This document shows, piece after piece, positions 4,741-18,224 of a stretch of 64,000 nucleotides of DNA (positions within the stretch are counted from its first letter, which is position 1; each line of letters starts with the position of its first letter). This DNA comes from Terriglobus roseus (GTDB taxonomy: Bacteria > Acidobacteriota > Terriglobia > Terriglobales > Acidobacteriaceae): contig NZ_FNSD01000001.1 of NCBI RefSeq assembly GCF_900105625.1, forward strand, positions 2,480,001 through 2,544,000, in the 5' to 3' direction. The position numbers and the translations under genes are program-made. Under the pieces are notes generated by a model. It was given only the letters and a program-made list of their open reading frames with translations. It was not told the origin of the DNA and did no database searches.

Positions 4741-5667
4741 ATGTTCCGCAAGAACCGCATCACCTTCGCACTCTCCGCTGCCCTGCTCGCGACCTCTGCC
4801 GCCGCAGTGGCACAGGCGCCGCCCGCCGCGGCCGCTCCCAACCCGTTGCAGGCTGGCTTCCAGCGCATTGGCACGCCGCCGCCAATGAACAATTTCGCGG
4901 ACAACACTGGCTTCACACCGCTCTTCGACGGCACGTTGAAGGGTTGGAGCTACGACGCAAATCTATGGAACATTGCGGATGGCTCCATTCACCTCACCGC
5001 GACGTGCGAGAAGCCTACGGGCACCGTCTATGCCGTATCGACCGCCGGTGAGTTCGGCGACTTCGTTCTGAAGTATGAGATGAAGGGCACCGGCAACATC
5101 AACGGCGGCATGCAGTTTCGCAGCTACGTTACATCGGACTCCAATGTGACGGGCGGCCCCAAGATGGTGCCGGCACCGCGTCCTGCGATGCCTCCCCGGC
5201 CGCCATCTGCAGCAGGAGCCGCGGCAACACCGCGTCCGCCGCGCCCCGCAGCATGCGCCAGTCCCGGCACAGCCCCAAGCAAGGAATCCCAGGCCAAGTG
5301 GGACATGGCCGGCCCGCAGGCTGACTTCGACGAGGCGAATCACTACAGCGGCATGTTTTATGAGCAGAGCGGTCGCGCCGTCATTGCAACACCGGGCTAC
5401 AGCATGTACGCCGACGCAACGGGGAGCTGGGCCCTGGCGCAGATCGCGGACAAGGCAACACATGACTCCTGGTTCCACAAGGATGACTGGAACCAGTTCG
5501 TCGTCGTCGCCATCGGTCACTCGGTATCGATCTACATGAACAATCACCTTGTCACCCAGATCGTCGATACTGACCCGAAGTACTTCCGCAGCGCCGGCAA
5601 GATCGGCGTTGAGTCCGAGTCACTCGGCGATCTGTGGGTTCGCAACATCTCGATCAAGAAGCTGTAG
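4741..5667 (+). CDS. Secreted DUF1080 protein (3-keto-disaccharide hydrolase family)
   Basis: This protein has 308 residues; a GGAGG ribosome site precedes the ATG and the gene starts 28 bases after the oxidoreductase. A signal peptide (residues about 1-25, ending AVAQA) points to export. The DUF1080 signature reads TPLFDGTLKGWSYD near residue 60, followed by INGGMQFRSYV and the C-terminal WNQFVVVAIGHSVSIYMN and SAGKIGVESES strands of the concanavalin-like beta-sandwich. A Pro/Ala-rich loop (about residues 145-180) replaces the usual short linker. Family members cleave 3-keto-glycosides. A second DUF1080 gene follows directly. Confidence 0.8.
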   Translation: MFRKNRITFALSAALLATSAAAVAQAPPAAAAPNPLQAGFQRIGTPPPMNNFADNTGFTPLFDGTLKGWSYDANLWNIADGSIHLTATCEKPTGTVYAVSTAGEFGDFVLKYEMKGTGNINGGMQFRSYVTSDSNVTGGPKMVPAPRPAMPPRPPSAAGAAATPRPPRPAACASPGTAPSKESQAKWDMAGPQADFDEANHYSGMFYEQSGRAVIATPGYSMYADATGSWALAQIADKATHDSWFHKDDWNQFVVVAIGHSVSIYMNNHLVTQIVDTDPKYFRSAGKIGVESESLGDLWVRNISIKKL

Positions 5668-9638: not shown

Positions 9639-9726
9639 GGTGCAGATGATTGTAGCGGCAAGCAGCAGTAAACCCGCAACTCACCCCTTTCCATCCTGCG
9701 CCTGAGGCAGGTAAGAGGAACAGGGT

Positions 9727-9863
9727 GCCCCATTCTTTGCGAAGCAAAGGGCGGGCTATCGCGCGCAGCGCGACCCTCCGCGTCTATTGCGTTTAGCGTT
9801 GGCGATGGTTCGCCGTTTCTGCGAATGCCCACCTTATGCGAGGAAGCGGCGAAAGAATGGGCA
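9727..9863. repeat. Dispersed palindromic repeat, family B, copy 1 (paired)
   Basis: CCCCATTCTTTGCGAAGCAA with following GGGCGGG forms a hairpin around TTTGC-GAA-GCAAA (9736-9748). An oppositely oriented partner lies at 9826-9863 (TGCCCA ... TGGGCA). The first half is almost identical to 18071-18090. It lies in the 264-base gap between the LacI and rhamnulokinase genes, which holds no gene. Confidence 0.75.
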
Positions 9864-12030: not shown

Positions 12031-14241
12031 CTACCGGAGATACGCCTCGGGCAAACCACCGTCCACCGGGATCAGATGGCCGCTGGTGACCGGCGCCTTC
12101 GGTCCACCGATAAACAGGATGGCCTCCGCGTTGTCTTTCGGATCGATGGGAATGTGCGTCAGCGTGCGCTTCGCGTAGAAGTGCGCCAGCTTGTTGCGCA
12201 GCTCGTCGTCCGTCTCGCTCTCTTCGAATGCCAGGTTGTACTTGCTCAGCGAAGCCTTCACGCGGTCGCGCGGGAACATCGTCGAACCCTTGACCACGGT
12301 CGCCGGGCTGATGCCGTTGACACGCACATCGGGCGAGAAGGTGATGGCAAGTTCGCGCACCAGGTGGCTGAGCGCCGCCTTCGAGATGTCGTATACCTCG
12401 GTGCCCTTCTTGGGCACAACGGCGTTCGCAGAACTCGTCAGCACAATGGACGAACCAGGCAACGCCTGAGCGGCGAAGATCTTGTTCGCTTCATCGCTCA
12501 GGAGCCAGTTGGCCGTCACGTTGATCTCAAGCGTGGTGCCCCACTGTGCGTCGCTGATCTCGCCGGTTGGCGACGTCGGGAAGATGGCAGCCGTGTTGAT
12601 CAGGATGTCGAGACCACCAAAGGCCGCAACACACTTATCAAGAGCAGCCTTGATCTTCTCGCGGCTACGGATGTCGATGGAAGTGCCGACCGCGCACTCC
12701 TTGCCACCGATCGCCTGCGCCTCGGCGACAACACCATCGATCGCGGCCTGGTTGAGATCGGCGACCACGATGTGCGCGCCGCGGTGGGCAGCCAGCAGGA
12801 CGGTCTCACGACCGATGCCAGAGGCTCCACCGACGACCATGACGATGCGGCGGCTCAGCTCCTTCTCAGGCGGCTGACGCTGAATCTTGGCCTCTTCAAG
12901 AGCCCAGTACTCAATGCGGAATGCTTCGGATGGCGGCAATGCAACGTAGTTCTCTTCTGTCGCGAATGCTGAGGTCGGAGCAGCGGGACCAGCCTGCGGC
13001 AGCTCTGCCGGGCAGGTGCCTTCGCCGAGCTGGCCGGCGCCATTCATCACGTGGATCGCGTTCGTGTAGAACTCGCCCGTGATGCGGCTCTCTGCCTTGT
13101 TCTTGCCGAACGAGAACATGCCGACGCCGGGGATTAGAACGACGGTCGGGTTTGCATCGCGCATCTTCGGCGAAGCCGGTAGTGCGTGGTTGCCGTAGTA
13201 GGTCGCGTACTCCTCGCGATAGGTTTTGAGCGAGGACGTGATCGCCGCCTTCAGCGCTGAGACATCGGTCTTCGGATCCCACTCGACATACATGGGGCGA
13301 ATCTTGGTACGGATGAAATGATCCGGGCAGCTGGTGCCCAGGTGCGCCAGCTTCTTCGCATACTGGGAGTTCACGAACTCGAGCACGTCCTCGTGATCGC
13401 TGAAGGTGCCTATCAGGCGCTGCTTCTGCGACACGCCGCCGCGAATAACGGGCATCAGTTGTGCTGCCAGCGTCTCGCGCTCCGCGTGGTTCGTATGTTT
13501 CACACCACCGAAGGCAGGCAGAGCCTTCTTCAGGTTGTGCGCTTCAATGAATTGACCGATCTGGTCGATGATGGTGACGGTGTTCAGGTAGCTCTCGCGC
13601 TGCGTCTCGCCCCACGTGAAGAGGCCGTGGCCGCCGAGGACGATGCCATCGCAACCGGGGTTCGCTGCCACTGCGCGCTGCAACATCATGCCGAGCTCAA
13701 AACCGGGACGCTGCCACGGAACCCAGACAATCTTGTGTCCGAACTCCTTGTTGAATTGCTCCATCTTCTCCAGGCCATTGGCCGAGGCAGCCAAAGCAAT
13801 GCCCCAGTCCGGGTGGAGGTGGTCGACGTGAGGGAAGGGCAGGTAGCCGTGCAGCGGCGTGTCGATCGAGGCAGCCGTCGGGTTGTTGTTGAACGTGCAG
13901 AGAGGGTACATGGCGACCATCTCGTCTTCGTTCTCAACACCGCGGTAACGCTTGGTCAGCGACAGCACCTTGTCGAGGTACAGCGTCGCAAAACCACTGC
14001 GCTTGATAGAACCCAGATCGCCGCCCGAACCTTTGACCCACAGCACCTTGACGGTCTCGCCGGTGAGGGGATCGATCTCGTCGAGCTTGGAGGAGGTGTT
14101 GCCGCCGCCGAAGTTGGTCAGACGCAGGTCCGAACCCAGCAGGTTCGAGCGGTAACGGAGCAGCTCCGGAGCGTCCAGCTTGGAGGCGACAGCGTCGTCC
14201 CAGCGATCTTCCAGAAACTTGAGCTTTGCAGTGCTTGCCAT
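12031..14241 (-). CDS. rhaEW: Bifunctional rhamnulose-1-phosphate aldolase / L-lactaldehyde dehydrogenase (SDR)
   Basis: Splits L-rhamnulose-1-phosphate into dihydroxyacetone phosphate and L-lactaldehyde and is expected to oxidise the latter to L-lactate. The ATG at 14239-14241, behind AAGGGA, gives 736 residues. Residues 1 to about 430 are a class II aldolase domain with FGGGNTSSKL, VKGSGGDLGSI, the histidine-rich SIDTPLHGYLPFPHVDHLHP and GGHGLFTWG. Residues about 470-736 are a short-chain dehydrogenase with GGASGIGRE, DILINTAA and the catalytic YDISK. This fused layout is the known TIGR02632 type. A LacI-type palindrome lies 129 bases upstream. Confidence 0.92.
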   Translation of the reverse strand: MASTAKLKFLEDRWDDAVASKLDAPELLRYRSNLLGSDLRLTNFGGGNTSSKLDEIDPLTGETVKVLWVKGSGGDLGSIKRSGFATLYLDKVLSLTKRYRGVENEDEMVAMYPLCTFNNNPTAASIDTPLHGYLPFPHVDHLHPDWGIALAASANGLEKMEQFNKEFGHKIVWVPWQRPGFELGMMLQRAVAANPGCDGIVLGGHGLFTWGETQRESYLNTVTIIDQIGQFIEAHNLKKALPAFGGVKHTNHAERETLAAQLMPVIRGGVSQKQRLIGTFSDHEDVLEFVNSQYAKKLAHLGTSCPDHFIRTKIRPMYVEWDPKTDVSALKAAITSSLKTYREEYATYYGNHALPASPKMRDANPTVVLIPGVGMFSFGKNKAESRITGEFYTNAIHVMNGAGQLGEGTCPAELPQAGPAAPTSAFATEENYVALPPSEAFRIEYWALEEAKIQRQPPEKELSRRIVMVVGGASGIGRETVLLAAHRGAHIVVADLNQAAIDGVVAEAQAIGGKECAVGTSIDIRSREKIKAALDKCVAAFGGLDILINTAAIFPTSPTGEISDAQWGTTLEINVTANWLLSDEANKIFAAQALPGSSIVLTSSANAVVPKKGTEVYDISKAALSHLVRELAITFSPDVRVNGISPATVVKGSTMFPRDRVKASLSKYNLAFEESETDDELRNKLAHFYAKRTLTHIPIDPKDNAEAILFIGGPKAPVTSGHLIPVDGGLPEAYLR

Positions 14242-15420: not shown

Positions 15421-15603
15421 ATGCCCTATCGTCTCGACGGCAAGACCGCAGTCATCACCGGAGCGGCACAGGCATCGGCCGCGCCTCCGCACTTCTCTTT
15501 GCTGAAGCAGGCGCAACCGTCTGGGCCACCGACCGCAATCCAGCGACGAGTCACGCTTCGCGACCGCACGTGCGTTCTCATCAACGGTGGTATGAGCCTA
15601 TGA
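15421..15603 (+). pseudogene. Short-chain dehydrogenase remnant with internal deletion and frameshifts
   Basis: The start MPYRLDGKTAVITGA is a normal SDR N-terminus behind a good ribosome site (AGGAGCCACGCC). One base is missing inside the glycine motif; in the shifted frame GTGIGRASALLFAEAGATVW and ATDRNPA continue the Rossmann fold. The sequence then jumps directly to an SDR tail (DESRFATG, then VLINGGMSL and stop at 15603), which needs another frame change. About 200 internal residues, including the catalytic Ser-Tyr-Lys, are gone. It was most likely a 2-keto-3-deoxy-L-rhamnonate or L-fuconate 4-dehydrogenase partner of the FAH gene. Confidence 0.82.
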
Positions 15604-15713: not shown

Positions 15714-15773
15714 GCCCTTGCTGAAAGCCACAGGCTTCCCTCACCGAGGCATGCTCCGGCTTTCAGCAAGGGC
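15714..15773. repeat. 16-base perfect inverted repeat before the protease module
   Basis: GCCCTTGCTGAAAGCC (15714-15729) and GGCTTTCAGCAAGGGC (15758-15773) flank a 28-base spacer. It lies between the SDR remnant and the protease gene, 64 bases before that gene's start. It could be a terminator, a repeat of the dispersed type, or mark a junction. Confidence 0.8.
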
Positions 15774-15837: not shown

Positions 15838-17559
15838 ATGCTGGTCGTCTTTCAGATACCTCTGGCAGATTTGCGGGCGTTTCGAGCTACGTCGTCGCGA
15901 CGAGATCGGCCACACTGGCCGACACCAGATGCAGGCGTTGAGTTCATCCGTTTCTTCGGCCCGGTGCGCGAGCGCAGAACGGGTAAACGAACGCCACTGG
16001 CATGGGCGGATGAGATGTACTTCGTCGATGCCTCACGCGCTCTTCGTGTTCAACCGTTTCCACACACTCAAAAGCGATGGACCTGCGCGTTTCGCCGTAT
16101 CCTCAGCGATGGCGGAGCAGTCGTCCGCTTTGAGATCGGCTTTCATATTCCGCCAAGCAGCGTTGACCCGCCAACTCCGCTGCTTGAGACCATCGGCAAG
16201 ATCCTTGACCTGCCCTGTACGGTTCGCGGTGAGAAGACCGCGATCAAGCTTCTCCTTGTGGGGAAGAGGCTCGCCACGCTCTACGCGAAGTCAACGGCAC
16301 CTCGCGGAACAGAACTTAGAGGTGACGAGGTTGTCGCGGGACAGCCGACTGTTCTTGTCCAATTAGACGATCTTGATCGACCGGGCATGCCAAGGTTTGT
16401 CGACTTCGATAGCGACCATCTTGCCTTCCTAAAGACCACGCGGAATGGCATCCCGATGAATGTGTGGATGACTAATTCAGGTTTCGGTGATCCTCGGAAC
16501 ACTCGCGCCGCCCTGTTGCGCCTGAGTGCGGAACATCAATCGTTGAAGTACGTTCTTCGGGATATCACCAGCGGCAACGTTGTGCTGGAGGGCGAAACCC
16601 CGCAAACAGCGGCACTACAGACATACCTGAACAATGCGAGCCGCACACTCAGTAAGGAGAGCCGCTTCGGCATTGACCAGACTGCCCTCATCGGACTCAC
16701 GCAAAAATACGAAACGCTATGCGGTGGCGCGGAACTCCAGATGTTACGAAATAACCTCGACCAGATCCGTCCGCAGATCAGGACGAAAGTAATGGTTCTG
16801 GTGAACGCTGCCAACAGCAATCAAGCGCCGTTGAATTCCAACGGTCCCGAGTTCCAGTGGCAGGGAGGCTTTGACCAAGTTGAACTGCAGGCATTCTTAC
16901 GGAGTCCACGGCCCCTCATCAACGTAGCGTGGATGGCCGACGTAACGGCTCGACTTTGCCCGGCGGTGTGCCGAATTGATTTCCCTGCGATCGGTCGGAA
17001 AGCCACTGGCTTTCTTGTCGCGAAAGACCTCATCCTGACGAACTGGCATGTGATCGAAGAGTTTCCCGGCGACCCACGCGACGCAAACCTGGCCGGCATG
17101 GAACTCTGCTTCACACAAAGCTCGCAGCCCACCCGCGTCTTCAAGCTTGTAAGGAACAGCCCGGGACAGGCTCTTATCAAGGGCAGCGCCGTCGCCCAAC
17201 AGGATTACGTTCTGCTGCGGGTCAGCGAGGACGTGGCTGCCGTGCTGGGCGTGACGCCCTTCGGCTGCAAGGCAAACTCTCAGCCAGTGGTTCGCCAGCC
17301 GATCCACATGATCCAGCACCCGGGTGGCGGTGCCTTGCAGATCTCAGTGGATGAGGACGGCGTGACAGGCATCTACCCGGATTCCGGCAAGGTTCAATAC
17401 ATCTCGACGGCCCATGCGGGCTCCAGCGGATCGCCCTGTATCGATGGCAACAAAGACCTGGTAGCAATCCATCATGCGGAGGTTCAGCGTGCATTCGGCG
17501 CAATCCGCGAAGGCATTTTATTGAGTTCGATCTTCCCGGATATCTCGCCGTATTTGTAG
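15838..17559 (+). CDS. Trypsin-like serine protease with large unknown N-terminal region
   Basis: This protein of 573 residues has no signal peptide. Residues about 375-570 form a trypsin-fold peptidase: TNWHV gives His404, QQDYVLLRV gives Asp456 and AHAGSSGSP gives Ser530 as nucleophile. Residues 1-340 match nothing that I recognise; 1-215 look beta-rich and 220-320 helical. Cytoplasmic trypsin-like peptidases joined to sensor or adaptor domains are known parts of bacterial conflict systems, but the role here is inference. A small membrane protein follows 41 bases later in the same direction. The pair sits right after a deleted gene, between repeat elements, as an inserted module would. Confidence 0.8.
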   Translation: MLVVFQIPLADLRAFRATSSRRDRPHWPTPDAGVEFIRFFGPVRERRTGKRTPLAWADEMYFVDASRALRVQPFPHTQKRWTCAFRRILSDGGAVVRFEIGFHIPPSSVDPPTPLLETIGKILDLPCTVRGEKTAIKLLLVGKRLATLYAKSTAPRGTELRGDEVVAGQPTVLVQLDDLDRPGMPRFVDFDSDHLAFLKTTRNGIPMNVWMTNSGFGDPRNTRAALLRLSAEHQSLKYVLRDITSGNVVLEGETPQTAALQTYLNNASRTLSKESRFGIDQTALIGLTQKYETLCGGAELQMLRNNLDQIRPQIRTKVMVLVNAANSNQAPLNSNGPEFQWQGGFDQVELQAFLRSPRPLINVAWMADVTARLCPAVCRIDFPAIGRKATGFLVAKDLILTNWHVIEEFPGDPRDANLAGMELCFTQSSQPTRVFKLVRNSPGQALIKGSAVAQQDYVLLRVSEDVAAVLGVTPFGCKANSQPVVRQPIHMIQHPGGGALQISVDEDGVTGIYPDSGKVQYISTAHAGSSGSPCIDGNKDLVAIHHAEVQRAFGAIREGILLSSIFPDISPYL

Positions 17560-17600
17560 TCGAAGGTTTCGGCATAAGCAAGTTCAAGGAGAGTTCTCAC

Positions 17601-18014
17601 ATGGCCCGAAGGATCAACACAGTCTCATTGCAGGCAGCCGGCGGCGGTGGCGAAAAGCCGGATGATTACACCGACCGAATGGTTAAGTTCATCCCGGCGG
17701 ACGTGGTGGCTGCCTGGATCGCCGTGACATCTGCCATCCGATCCGCGGCGAACCCGCCCAGTGTGCGAATGCTCTGGATCATCTTTGCGATTGGTGCGGT
17801 CTTCGCCGCATTGTGGACCTGGCGCAAAGCCTCAGAGCCCGGTAAACCTCCGCCCTATATTCAGACAGTTGTATCGACCGTCGCCTTCTTCGTCTGGGCC
17901 TACGCAACGGGCGGTGTCTTACCGCAGTGGCCAGGCAGTCTGTACCAGCCGCTGAACGCCACGCTTCTGCTTGTTGGCTTCTCGTTGCTGAGCGGCCTGA
18001 TCACCAAACCCTAG
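17601..18014 (+). CDS. Small multi-pass membrane protein, partner of the protease
   Basis: This protein of 137 residues starts behind AAGGAGA, 41 bases after the protease gene, so the two are almost certainly co-transcribed. A short polar N-terminus (Gly-rich, residues 11-20) precedes a helix YTDRMVKFIPADVVAAWIAV (23-42), then three membrane segments at about 54-73, 85-107 and 118-134. I do not recognise a family. The amphipathic VKFIPADVV helix may lie on the membrane surface and bind the cytoplasmic protease. It could be a membrane anchor, a substrate or a pore-like effector released by cleavage; no evidence separates these. Confidence 0.75.
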   Translation: MARRINTVSLQAAGGGGEKPDDYTDRMVKFIPADVVAAWIAVTSAIRSAANPPSVRMLWIIFAIGAVFAALWTWRKASEPGKPPPYIQTVVSTVAFFVWAYATGGVLPQWPGSLYQPLNATLLLVGFSLLSGLITKP

Positions 18015-18069
18015 GGCAGGGGCAGCTCCGTCTGTCGTATTGACTTCCTATCCCTCCGATCAGATCGGG

Positions 18070-18224
18070 TACCCCATTCTTTGCGAAGCAATGGTGGGGT
18101 ATAGCGCTGAGCACGACTTGTGAAGATCGCCTCAGAGATCGGAAGGCCACACGCAGCGAGAACGATCGTGCCCTGCGCGAAGACCCCACCATTTCGCACA
18201 TAGCCGTGAAAATGGGACATCCCA
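18070..18224. repeat. Dispersed palindromic repeat, family B, copy 2 (paired)
   Basis: TACCCCA (18070-18076) and TGGGGTA (18095-18101) close a hairpin containing CCATTCTTTGCGAAGCAATGG-like symmetry (arms CCATT/AATGG). An inverted partner at 18183-18224 begins ACCCCACCATTTCGC. It fills the gap between the membrane protein gene and the TonB receptor, which hold convergent ends. Confidence 0.8.

What the first reader, a model, noticed from the sequence alone, without database searches (positions are those of the whole stretch)
15838..18014. Two-gene module: cytoplasmic trypsin-like protease with unknown sensor half, plus a small membrane protein
The protease keeps a full His404/Asp456/Ser530 triad but has no signal peptide, and its first 340 residues are unrecognised. 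A three-helix membrane protein follows 41 bases later. The pair sits just after a gene broken by deletion and is flanked by a 16-base inverted repeat and a family B repeat, as expected of an acquired block. A trigger-activated protease plus membrane partner is the general layout of several bacterial conflict or self-killing systems. This could be an undescribed member, but that role is inference.
Basis: partly seen in the sequence, partly recalled or inferred. Interest (0 to 1): 0.72.

Follow-up and report, generated by a model that had tools for sequence, protein, structure and literature searches.

The report
Protease and membrane partner, likely defence
A soil-type bacterium carries two neighbouring genes, an internal protein-cutting enzyme with its own front-end domain and a small membrane protein; relatives of each part sit next to known or suspected anti-virus genes in some other bacteria, so the pair is probably an undescribed variety of a bacterial self-defence or suicide device, though nothing has been tested.

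Summary
In detail: an intact 573-aa cytosolic trypsin-like protease (H404/D456/S530) is followed 41 bp later by a 137-aa membrane protein. The N-terminal half matched no Pfam, PADLOC or NCBIfam family but is a mobile domain: 14 proteins found, one with trypsin (window), one with a CHAT caspase-like domain, twelve with a variable tail, usually ending hydrophobic. Three of 12 other loci lie near known or candidate defence genes; only those three had neighbours scanned with PADLOC. The trypsin half is closest to EAD-trypsin effectors. The nearest, on a Fischerella plasmid, is followed by a 40%-identical membrane protein and a VMAP-C, MoxR-position AAA, FGE operon. Of 12 places holding the membrane family, 4 have a peptidase next door (trypsin twice, borderline CHAT before QatC, subtilisin). 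Most likely a stand-alone two-gene conflict module: the N-domain senses or assembles, the trypsin fires, the membrane partner executes or anchors; all steps of action are inference. EAD1 was not found in this genome, nor VMAP-C (that search's control was silent), so I call it a variant. Neither gene was found in 18 genus mates. No function has been tested.

The parts
15838..17559 (+). 573-aa cytosolic protease: unclassified N-terminal domain plus linker plus trypsin-like (S1) domain
   Evidence: ORF; triad H404/D456/S530; Trypsin_2 2e-16
15838..16842 (+). N-terminal alpha+beta domain, about residues 1-335, found in 14 proteins with three kinds of C-terminal part
   Evidence: AlphaFold2 mean pLDDT 60.2, pTM 0.67; best Foldseek PDB match E 0.56
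16843..17001 (+). linker ahead of the trypsin core, similar in pattern to the Fischerella EAD1-trypsin and, more weakly, to other EAD-trypsins
   Evidence: alignment
17002..17559 (+). trypsin-like peptidase domain; nearest solved structures by sequence are SplB and V8-type glutamyl endopeptidases
17601..18014 (+). 137-aa membrane protein with about 3-4 hydrophobic segments and motif YTD..VK.IPaDVV; no Pfam match over cut-off
15714..15773 (.). perfect 16-bp inverted repeat with 28-nt loop upstream of the pair; role unknown
15421..15603 (+). probable remnant of a short-chain dehydrogenase gene (by look)
18067..18089 (+). 23-bp repeat downstream of the pair; copy with one mismatch at 9723

Best explanation
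The two genes form a stand-alone, acquired conflict (anti-invader or self-killing) module. The N-terminal 335-residue domain is a front end that senses a trigger or assembles the protein; it stands where EAD adaptor domains stand in related trypsin effectors. When triggered it lets the cytosolic trypsin-like domain act. The downstream small membrane protein is the working partner: most likely it is cut or engaged by the protease and so changes the inner membrane, or failing that it holds the protease at the membrane. Shown: the two genes, the intact triad, the exchange of what the N-domain is fused to, a second pairing with a related membrane protein in Fischerella, and defence genes near some relatives. 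Inferred: sensing, activation, membrane damage, growth arrest or death, and any anti-phage effect.
For: Domain exchange: the N-domain is fused to trypsin (window), to CHAT (G410; Pfam CHAT 5.5e-8, PADLOC chat 1.9e-26; single uninterrupted frame) and to a variable tail in 12 others. The trypsin half's best plasmid match is the Fischerella EAD1-trypsin (34% over 325-573, E 2e-32); 5 of 6 plasmid trypsin relatives scanned with Pfam carry an EAD (EAD1 twice, EAD8 twice, EAD11 once), with shared core motifs. Fischerella has a membrane protein 40% identical over 118 residues (E 7e-19) 100 bp after its protease, then EAD1-VMAP-C, an AAA ATPase in the MoxR place and an FGE protein. The membrane family adjoins a peptidase in 4 of 12 places: trypsin twice, CHAT once (borderline), subtilisin once (8e-13). 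The CHAT case is two genes ahead of QatC (8e-34). N-domain genes lie near a HamB-type helicase and a CBASS cyclase, PDC-S19 (6.5e-126) and Upx (1.4e-17). Neither gene was found in 18 of 18 genus mates; the slot is variable.
Against: No defence gene was recognised around the pair in this window, but the window was not scanned for them. N-domain relatives had no membrane-family gene nearby (0 of 10 loci) and 11 of 12 plasmid trypsin loci examined had none. Of 12 membrane-family places 8 have no peptidase neighbour. The Bradyrhizobium CHAT match is 24.2 bits against a cut-off of 24, and PADLOC matched neither that protein nor the one I call QatB-like. The tree joining window and Fischerella trypsin domains is weak (75/61, long branches). 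The defence association (3 of 12 loci) has no chance control and PADLOC was run only on neighbours that looked relevant. EAD1 and VMAP-C (control silent) were not found in this genome. The CHAT fusion is on an 8.8-kb contig of a genome with 7% contamination. No cleavage site or trigger is known.
Confidence: 0.55

Rival explanations
1. The membrane protein is an anchor or inhibitor, not an executor: it recruits or restrains the protease at the inner membrane, and the real substrate is an essential host protein or a phage protein.
For: The family also occurs beside non-peptidase genes (TIR and type I HsdR in G391, a protein kinase in G409), which fits a general localisation partner. Trypco1, another gene that co-occurs with conflict trypsins, is called an adapter in PMC10907252 (passages).
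Against: The best conserved later stretch of the family (VST.SF..W.YA.G) lies in a hydrophobic segment rather than in a soluble docking part; a weak argument.
Confidence: 0.3
2. The protease is an effector arm of a larger NTPase conflict system encoded elsewhere in the genome, as EAD-trypsins are proposed to be arms of VMAP systems.
For: Architectural match to EAD1-trypsin plus membrane protein in the Fischerella VMAP-type operon.
Against: The N-domain was found once in this genome, so there is no second copy to pair with; EAD1 not found in G000 while the same search found both Fischerella copies; VMAP-C not found in G000 (control silent, though the same model matched Fischerella). MoxR and vWA were not searched.
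Confidence: 0.15
3. A protein quality-control or envelope-stress protease with a membrane cofactor, not a conflict system.
For: A cytosolic trypsin plus membrane protein could serve a regulated cut; no defence gene was recognised beside it.
Against: Pfam found no PDZ domain and the hydropathy scan no signal-peptide-like start; not found in 18 genus mates; close relatives are conflict effectors; rare and scattered spread.
Confidence: 0.12
4. Two independently acquired neighbours with no shared function.
For: The membrane family is often found without a peptidase (8 of 12 places), and 11 of 12 plasmid trypsin relatives examined lack it.
Against: Same strand, 41-bp gap, ribosome-binding-like AAGGAGAG before the second gene, and the same pairing on a cyanobacterial plasmid.
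Confidence: 0.12

Closest known systems
EAD-trypsin effectors of MoxR-vWA/VMAP conflict systems (Kaur et al. 2020, PMC7159879)
   Same: Trypsin with intact triad behind an exchangeable N-terminal module; core motifs shared; the Fischerella example has the same kind of membrane gene next to it
   Different: The N-terminal module is a 335-residue domain, not a small EAD; EAD1 and VMAP-C not found in this genome; two genes only
Trypco1/Trypco2, trypsin-co-occurring genes (PMC7159879)
   Same: Small gene beside a conflict trypsin
   Different: The partner here is a membrane protein and matched no Pfam family over cut-off
EACC1 two-gene membrane-associated system (PMC7159879, section 33)
   Same: Two genes, a membrane protein and a peptidase
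   Different: EACC1 has one TM helix, is the first gene, and pairs with a caspase-type peptidase with variable C-terminus
Bacterial gasdermin with adjacent protease (PMC9612521, passages)
   Same: Membrane-acting partner coded next to caspase-like or other proteases; trypsin-like genes appear in that paper's figure legend
   Different: The partner here is a 137-aa protein of 3-4 hydrophobic segments without a Pfam match over cut-off
Qat (QatABCD) systems (PMC13279940, PMC13329287, passages)
   Same: In Bradyrhizobium a membrane-family gene and a borderline CHAT protein lie directly before a glycine-rich protein and QatC
   Different: Applies to that relative only; no QatC was recognised beside the window pair

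Membership tests
EAD-trypsin effector of NTPase conflict systems | trypsin domain related to that group, with complete triad | tested here: met
EAD-trypsin effector of NTPase conflict systems | small non-enzymatic EAD fused to the peptidase | tested here: not met
   no EAD match in Pfam up to E 10; the domain is about 335 residues
EAD-trypsin effector of NTPase conflict systems | second copy of the adaptor on a core component in the same genome | tested here: not met
   one place only in the own genome by protein and by profile
EAD-trypsin effector of NTPase conflict systems | VMAP/MoxR/vWA core in the genome | tested here: inconclusive
   no VMAP-C in G000 but the control genomes were silent; MoxR and vWA not searched
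Trypco1/Trypco2 | match to the Trypco domain | tested here: inconclusive
   membrane protein has no Pfam match over cut-off; I did not verify that Pfam holds both Trypco models
EACC1 two-gene system | 5' single-TM EACC1 gene and 3' caspase-type gene | tested here: not met
   order reversed, several hydrophobic segments, trypsin instead
Bacterial gasdermin | gasdermin fold in the partner | tested here: inconclusive
   no significant Pfam, PADLOC or PDB-sequence match; I did not verify which gasdermin models the libraries hold; the structure job on the partner was unfinished
RT-Protease XI (PADLOC) | reverse transcriptase fused to the protease | tested here: not met
   match covers only the protease end, profile positions 336-485 of 506; no RT match in Pfam
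Anti-phage defence system | protection against phage | not testable with these tools
   needs an infection assay

The most novel reading that the evidence does not exclude
A protease-gated membrane executor distinct from gasdermins: one small integral membrane protein family serves as the shared partner or substrate of three unrelated peptidase folds (trypsin, CHAT, subtilisin), with exchangeable front ends, among them a new sensor or assembly domain that is itself shared between trypsin, CHAT and a hydrophobic-tailed effector.
Probability: 0.2. Interest if true: 0.85.

Novelty: new variant of a known kind. Interest (0 to 1): 0.62.

Why it matters
If right, it adds two undescribed building blocks to bacterial conflict systems: a front-end domain fused to at least two peptidase folds, and a small membrane protein that recurs with trypsin, subtilisin and possibly CHAT. 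It also gives a two-gene system, small enough to test in a laboratory strain, for the question of what EAD-type trypsin effectors actually cut.

Tried and rejected
Known families for the N-terminal half: Pfam, PADLOC, NCBIfam and PHROGs gave nothing significant there; a profile search of PDB sequences gave five matches, best E 0.061, taken as chance. The AlphaFold2 model from a six-row alignment is mediocre (mean pLDDT 60.2, pTM 0.67) and the best Foldseek PDB match has E 0.56, so no fold is named. Viral contigs gave no relatives for protease, N-domain or membrane family; phages gave three weak trypsin-domain matches, E 6e-3 to 8e-3.

Plain EAD1/VMAP membership was rejected, inconclusive. Trypco, EACC1, gasdermin and RT-Protease XI were considered (membership table). 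A two-repeat insertion boundary was rejected because the inverted repeat is one hairpin. A tree to test shared history of the two trypsin halves was inconclusive.

Rows dropped before counts: the marginal N-domain hit in G457 (20 bits); four weak membrane-family hits, G273, G263, G362 and G429, E 0.002-0.009. The Cupriavidus membrane-family hit is in two pieces; it is kept in the count of 12 although its neighbours are uninformative. Of 58 plasmid records matched, three match the N-domain only and 12 trypsin ones were fetched; the rest were not examined. A first alignment of the G285 membrane protein used wrong coordinates and was redone. On re-checking, the defence count was changed from 3 of 13 to 3 of 12 loci and the PADLOC misses in Bradyrhizobium were added; for that I lowered the best explanation from 0.58 to 0.55, the novel case from 0.22 to 0.20, and raised the 'unrelated neighbours' rival from 0.10 to 0.12.

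Full report
Observation. Both genes are present as described: a 573-aa protease at 15838-17559 and a 137-aa membrane protein at 17601-18014, same strand, 41 bp apart, with AAGGAGAG before the second start. H404, D456 and S530 are in the expected motifs. Pfam recognises only the trypsin core, residues 389-544. A hydropathy scan shows no membrane segment in the protease and four hydrophobic segments in the partner. The 16-bp inverted repeat is real but is one hairpin upstream of the pair.

Where it sits. The window lies in a 4.8-Mb genome. In a search of 150 genomes (own and relatives) the protease matched in two: the own genome, and G046, which has a distant match to the trypsin core alone. The membrane protein matched only in the own genome of 150. 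All 18 listed genus mates lack both; some are incomplete (completeness from 70%). In five genus mates examined, the gene before the pair (fumarylacetoacetate-hydrolase type) is followed by other genes; in the nearest, G011 (84% identity there), a SulP-like transporter lies between it and the DUF1080-like gene (91%), where the window has the dehydrogenase remnant, the pair and a TonB-receptor-like gene. So the slot is variable. G+C of the protease gene is 57.5%, of the membrane gene 60.1%, of the window 60.8%. Gene names in this paragraph are by look and recalled.

The N-terminal half is a mobile domain. tblastn of the whole protease against plasmids found three records that match residues 1-311 or less without a protease (Rhizobium, Nitrosomonas, Streptomyces). 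A scan of genome contigs gave six loci, with one further copy in L014. Profile searches matched 4 of 396 genomes of the own phylum, including the window and one marginal hit, 2 of 201 in the phylum of G528 including the seed, and only the seed among 329 (phylum of G525) and 246 (phylum of G527). Leaving out the marginal hit, that is 14 proteins at 13 loci, the window among them. Their C-termini differ: trypsin in the window; a CHAT caspase-like domain in G410 (Pfam CHAT 5.5e-8; PADLOC chat 1.9e-26), on an 8.8-kb contig of a genome with 7% contamination; and in twelve others a stretch of N/G-rich repeats, by eye, and a helical tail. Eight of those twelve were scanned for hydropathy, and all eight have a hydrophobic segment at the end at a lenient threshold of 1.0; one, L014b, stops before it; one, L015, is split over two frames. 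One front end shared by trypsin and CHAT is what adaptor or sensor domains do in conflict systems.

The trypsin half is of the conflict-effector kind. Its best plasmid match is a Fischerella protein, 34% identical over residues 325-573, E 2e-32, which Pfam reads as EAD1 plus Trypsin_2. Of 12 plasmid trypsin loci fetched, six were scanned with Pfam: five carry an EAD (EAD1 in Fischerella and Nostoc, EAD8 in Nostoc carneum and Aulosira, EAD11 in Tolypothrix), one, Bradyrhizobium barranii, does not. An alignment of six shows a partly shared linker and shared core motifs. In a maximum-likelihood tree of 14 trypsin domains the window joins Fischerella, but weakly (75/61) and on long branches. PDB sequence matches are mainly SplB and V8-type glutamyl endopeptidases.

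The membrane protein is a family. P0002 has a relative in the Fischerella plasmid, 40% identical over 118 residues (E 7e-19), 100 bp after the EAD1-trypsin, and a weaker one in Bradyrhizobium (28%, E 8e-3). The Fischerella operon goes on with EAD1-VMAP-C, an AAA ATPase in the MoxR place and an FGE-domain protein in the vWA place; Pfam did not find vWA itself. A profile search in 327 genomes of the own phylum gave 12 with E up to 0.01, eight of them below 1e-7 including the window; one more is in G528 (E 1.1e-5) and one, in two pieces, in Cupriavidus. With Fischerella and Bradyrhizobium these make 12 places once the four weak hits are dropped. Four have a peptidase as direct neighbour: trypsin (window, Fischerella), CHAT (Bradyrhizobium; 24.2 bits against a cut-off of 24) and subtilisin with TPR (G285, S8 E 8e-13, membrane gene at 5427 of L054 after a stop at 5390). 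One more lies between a type I restriction HsdR and a TIR protein (G391) and one beside a protein kinase (G409). The other six have unrelated or unread neighbours: a metallo-beta-lactamase-fold gene in G246 and an arylsulfotransferase-like gene in G430 by Pfam, an unmatched one in G406, and G343, G528 and Cupriavidus not scanned.

Defence context. The Bradyrhizobium operon reads membrane protein, CHAT-type protein, a glycine-rich protein starting MGSG, QatC (PADLOC 8e-34), ASCH protein. PADLOC matched only QatC of the five, and Pfam nothing in the glycine-rich one. Passages of the QatB/QatC structure paper describe a flexible QatB N-terminus with an essential MGTS motif (PMC13279940), so I call it QatB-like, by look only. 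The Rhizobium N-domain gene lies on a conjugative plasmid 1.8 kb from a HamB-type helicase (3e-47) and within about 14 kb of an annotated CBASS cyclase, a UvrD helicase, a restriction endonuclease (PDC-M58A 2.6e-18) and an integrase. The Nitrosomonas one is 1.2 kb from PDC-S19 (6.5e-126) and 3.3 kb from a type III-like methylase. The L014 one is 0.5 kb from an Upx match (1.4e-17), while its two other neighbours scanned matched nothing. That is 3 of the 12 N-domain loci outside the window. PADLOC was run on chosen neighbours at those three loci only; the other nine were judged from ORF lists or annotation, so 3 of 12 is neither a complete count nor one with a chance control.

How it probably works. 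By position the N-domain takes the place of an EAD, but it is large and found once in this genome; EAD1 was not found there (the same search found both Fischerella copies), nor VMAP-C (silent control). Hence it more likely senses or self-assembles than docks to a central NTPase. Activation would free the trypsin domain; the membrane partner, which recurs with more than one peptidase fold, is the natural executor or anchor. By analogy, bacterial gasdermins are often coded beside caspase-like and other proteases (PMC9612521, passages). Sensing, activation, cutting and membrane damage are inference.

Against. Relatives of the N-domain had no membrane-family gene nearby: 0 of 10 such loci scanned, and 0 of 11 other plasmid trypsin loci; loci L011 and L018 were not in that scan, but their genomes (G526, G483) gave no match. 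In that search of 14 genomes or records, 3 matched: the Fischerella and Bradyrhizobium seeds, and G528, on another contig than its N-domain gene. Tolypothrix has an unrelated 115-aa protein with hydrophobic stretches after its EAD11-trypsin, which hints at a recurring layout but not at this family. So the strict pairing rests on two loci, window and Fischerella, and more loosely on two other peptidase classes, one of them borderline.

Literature. PMC7159879 was read in sections 9 (part 1 of 2), 30, 32 and 33, its outline and passages; PMC8195603, PMC10907252, PMC9612521, PMC13329287 and PMC13279940 in passages. The listings of searches showed no paper on such a membrane partner or N-domain by title or abstract start; the papers not named here were not opened, and the library holds open-licence papers only, so this does not exclude a description elsewhere.

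Noticed in passing
L008:7980-14202 (Bradyrhizobium japonicum USDA 123 plasmid): Qat-like operon: membrane-family protein and borderline CHAT protein ahead of a glycine-rich protein, QatC (PADLOC 8e-34) and an ASCH protein; a possible CHAT-bearing Qat variant.
   Followed up: partly
L024:3106-4749 (G410): The N-domain fused to a CHAT caspase-like domain; no membrane-family match on the contig or in the genome; a transposase-like gene is on the same short contig.
   Followed up: partly
L014:7001-8542 and 12214-13584 (Eremiobacterota MAG): Two N-domain proteins in one locus near an Upx match; the second lacks the hydrophobic C-terminal tail.
   Followed up: no
L054:3939-5882 (G285): Subtilisin with TPR followed about 36 bp later by a membrane-family protein.
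   Followed up: partly
L041:3827-5317 (Tolypothrix plasmid): EAD11-trypsin followed by an unrelated 115-aa protein with hydrophobic stretches: the same layout with another partner.
   Followed up: no
window 9723-9745 and 18067-18089: Two copies of a 23-bp repeat, one mismatch apart; none of 100 shuffles had two matches at up to 3 mismatches. Some inner symmetry by eye, not listed by the repeat finder at 12 bp.
   Followed up: no
window 15714-15773: Only perfect 16-bp hairpin with a loop up to 60 bases in the window, predicted -38.9 kcal/mol as RNA, with no T run after it.
   Followed up: partly
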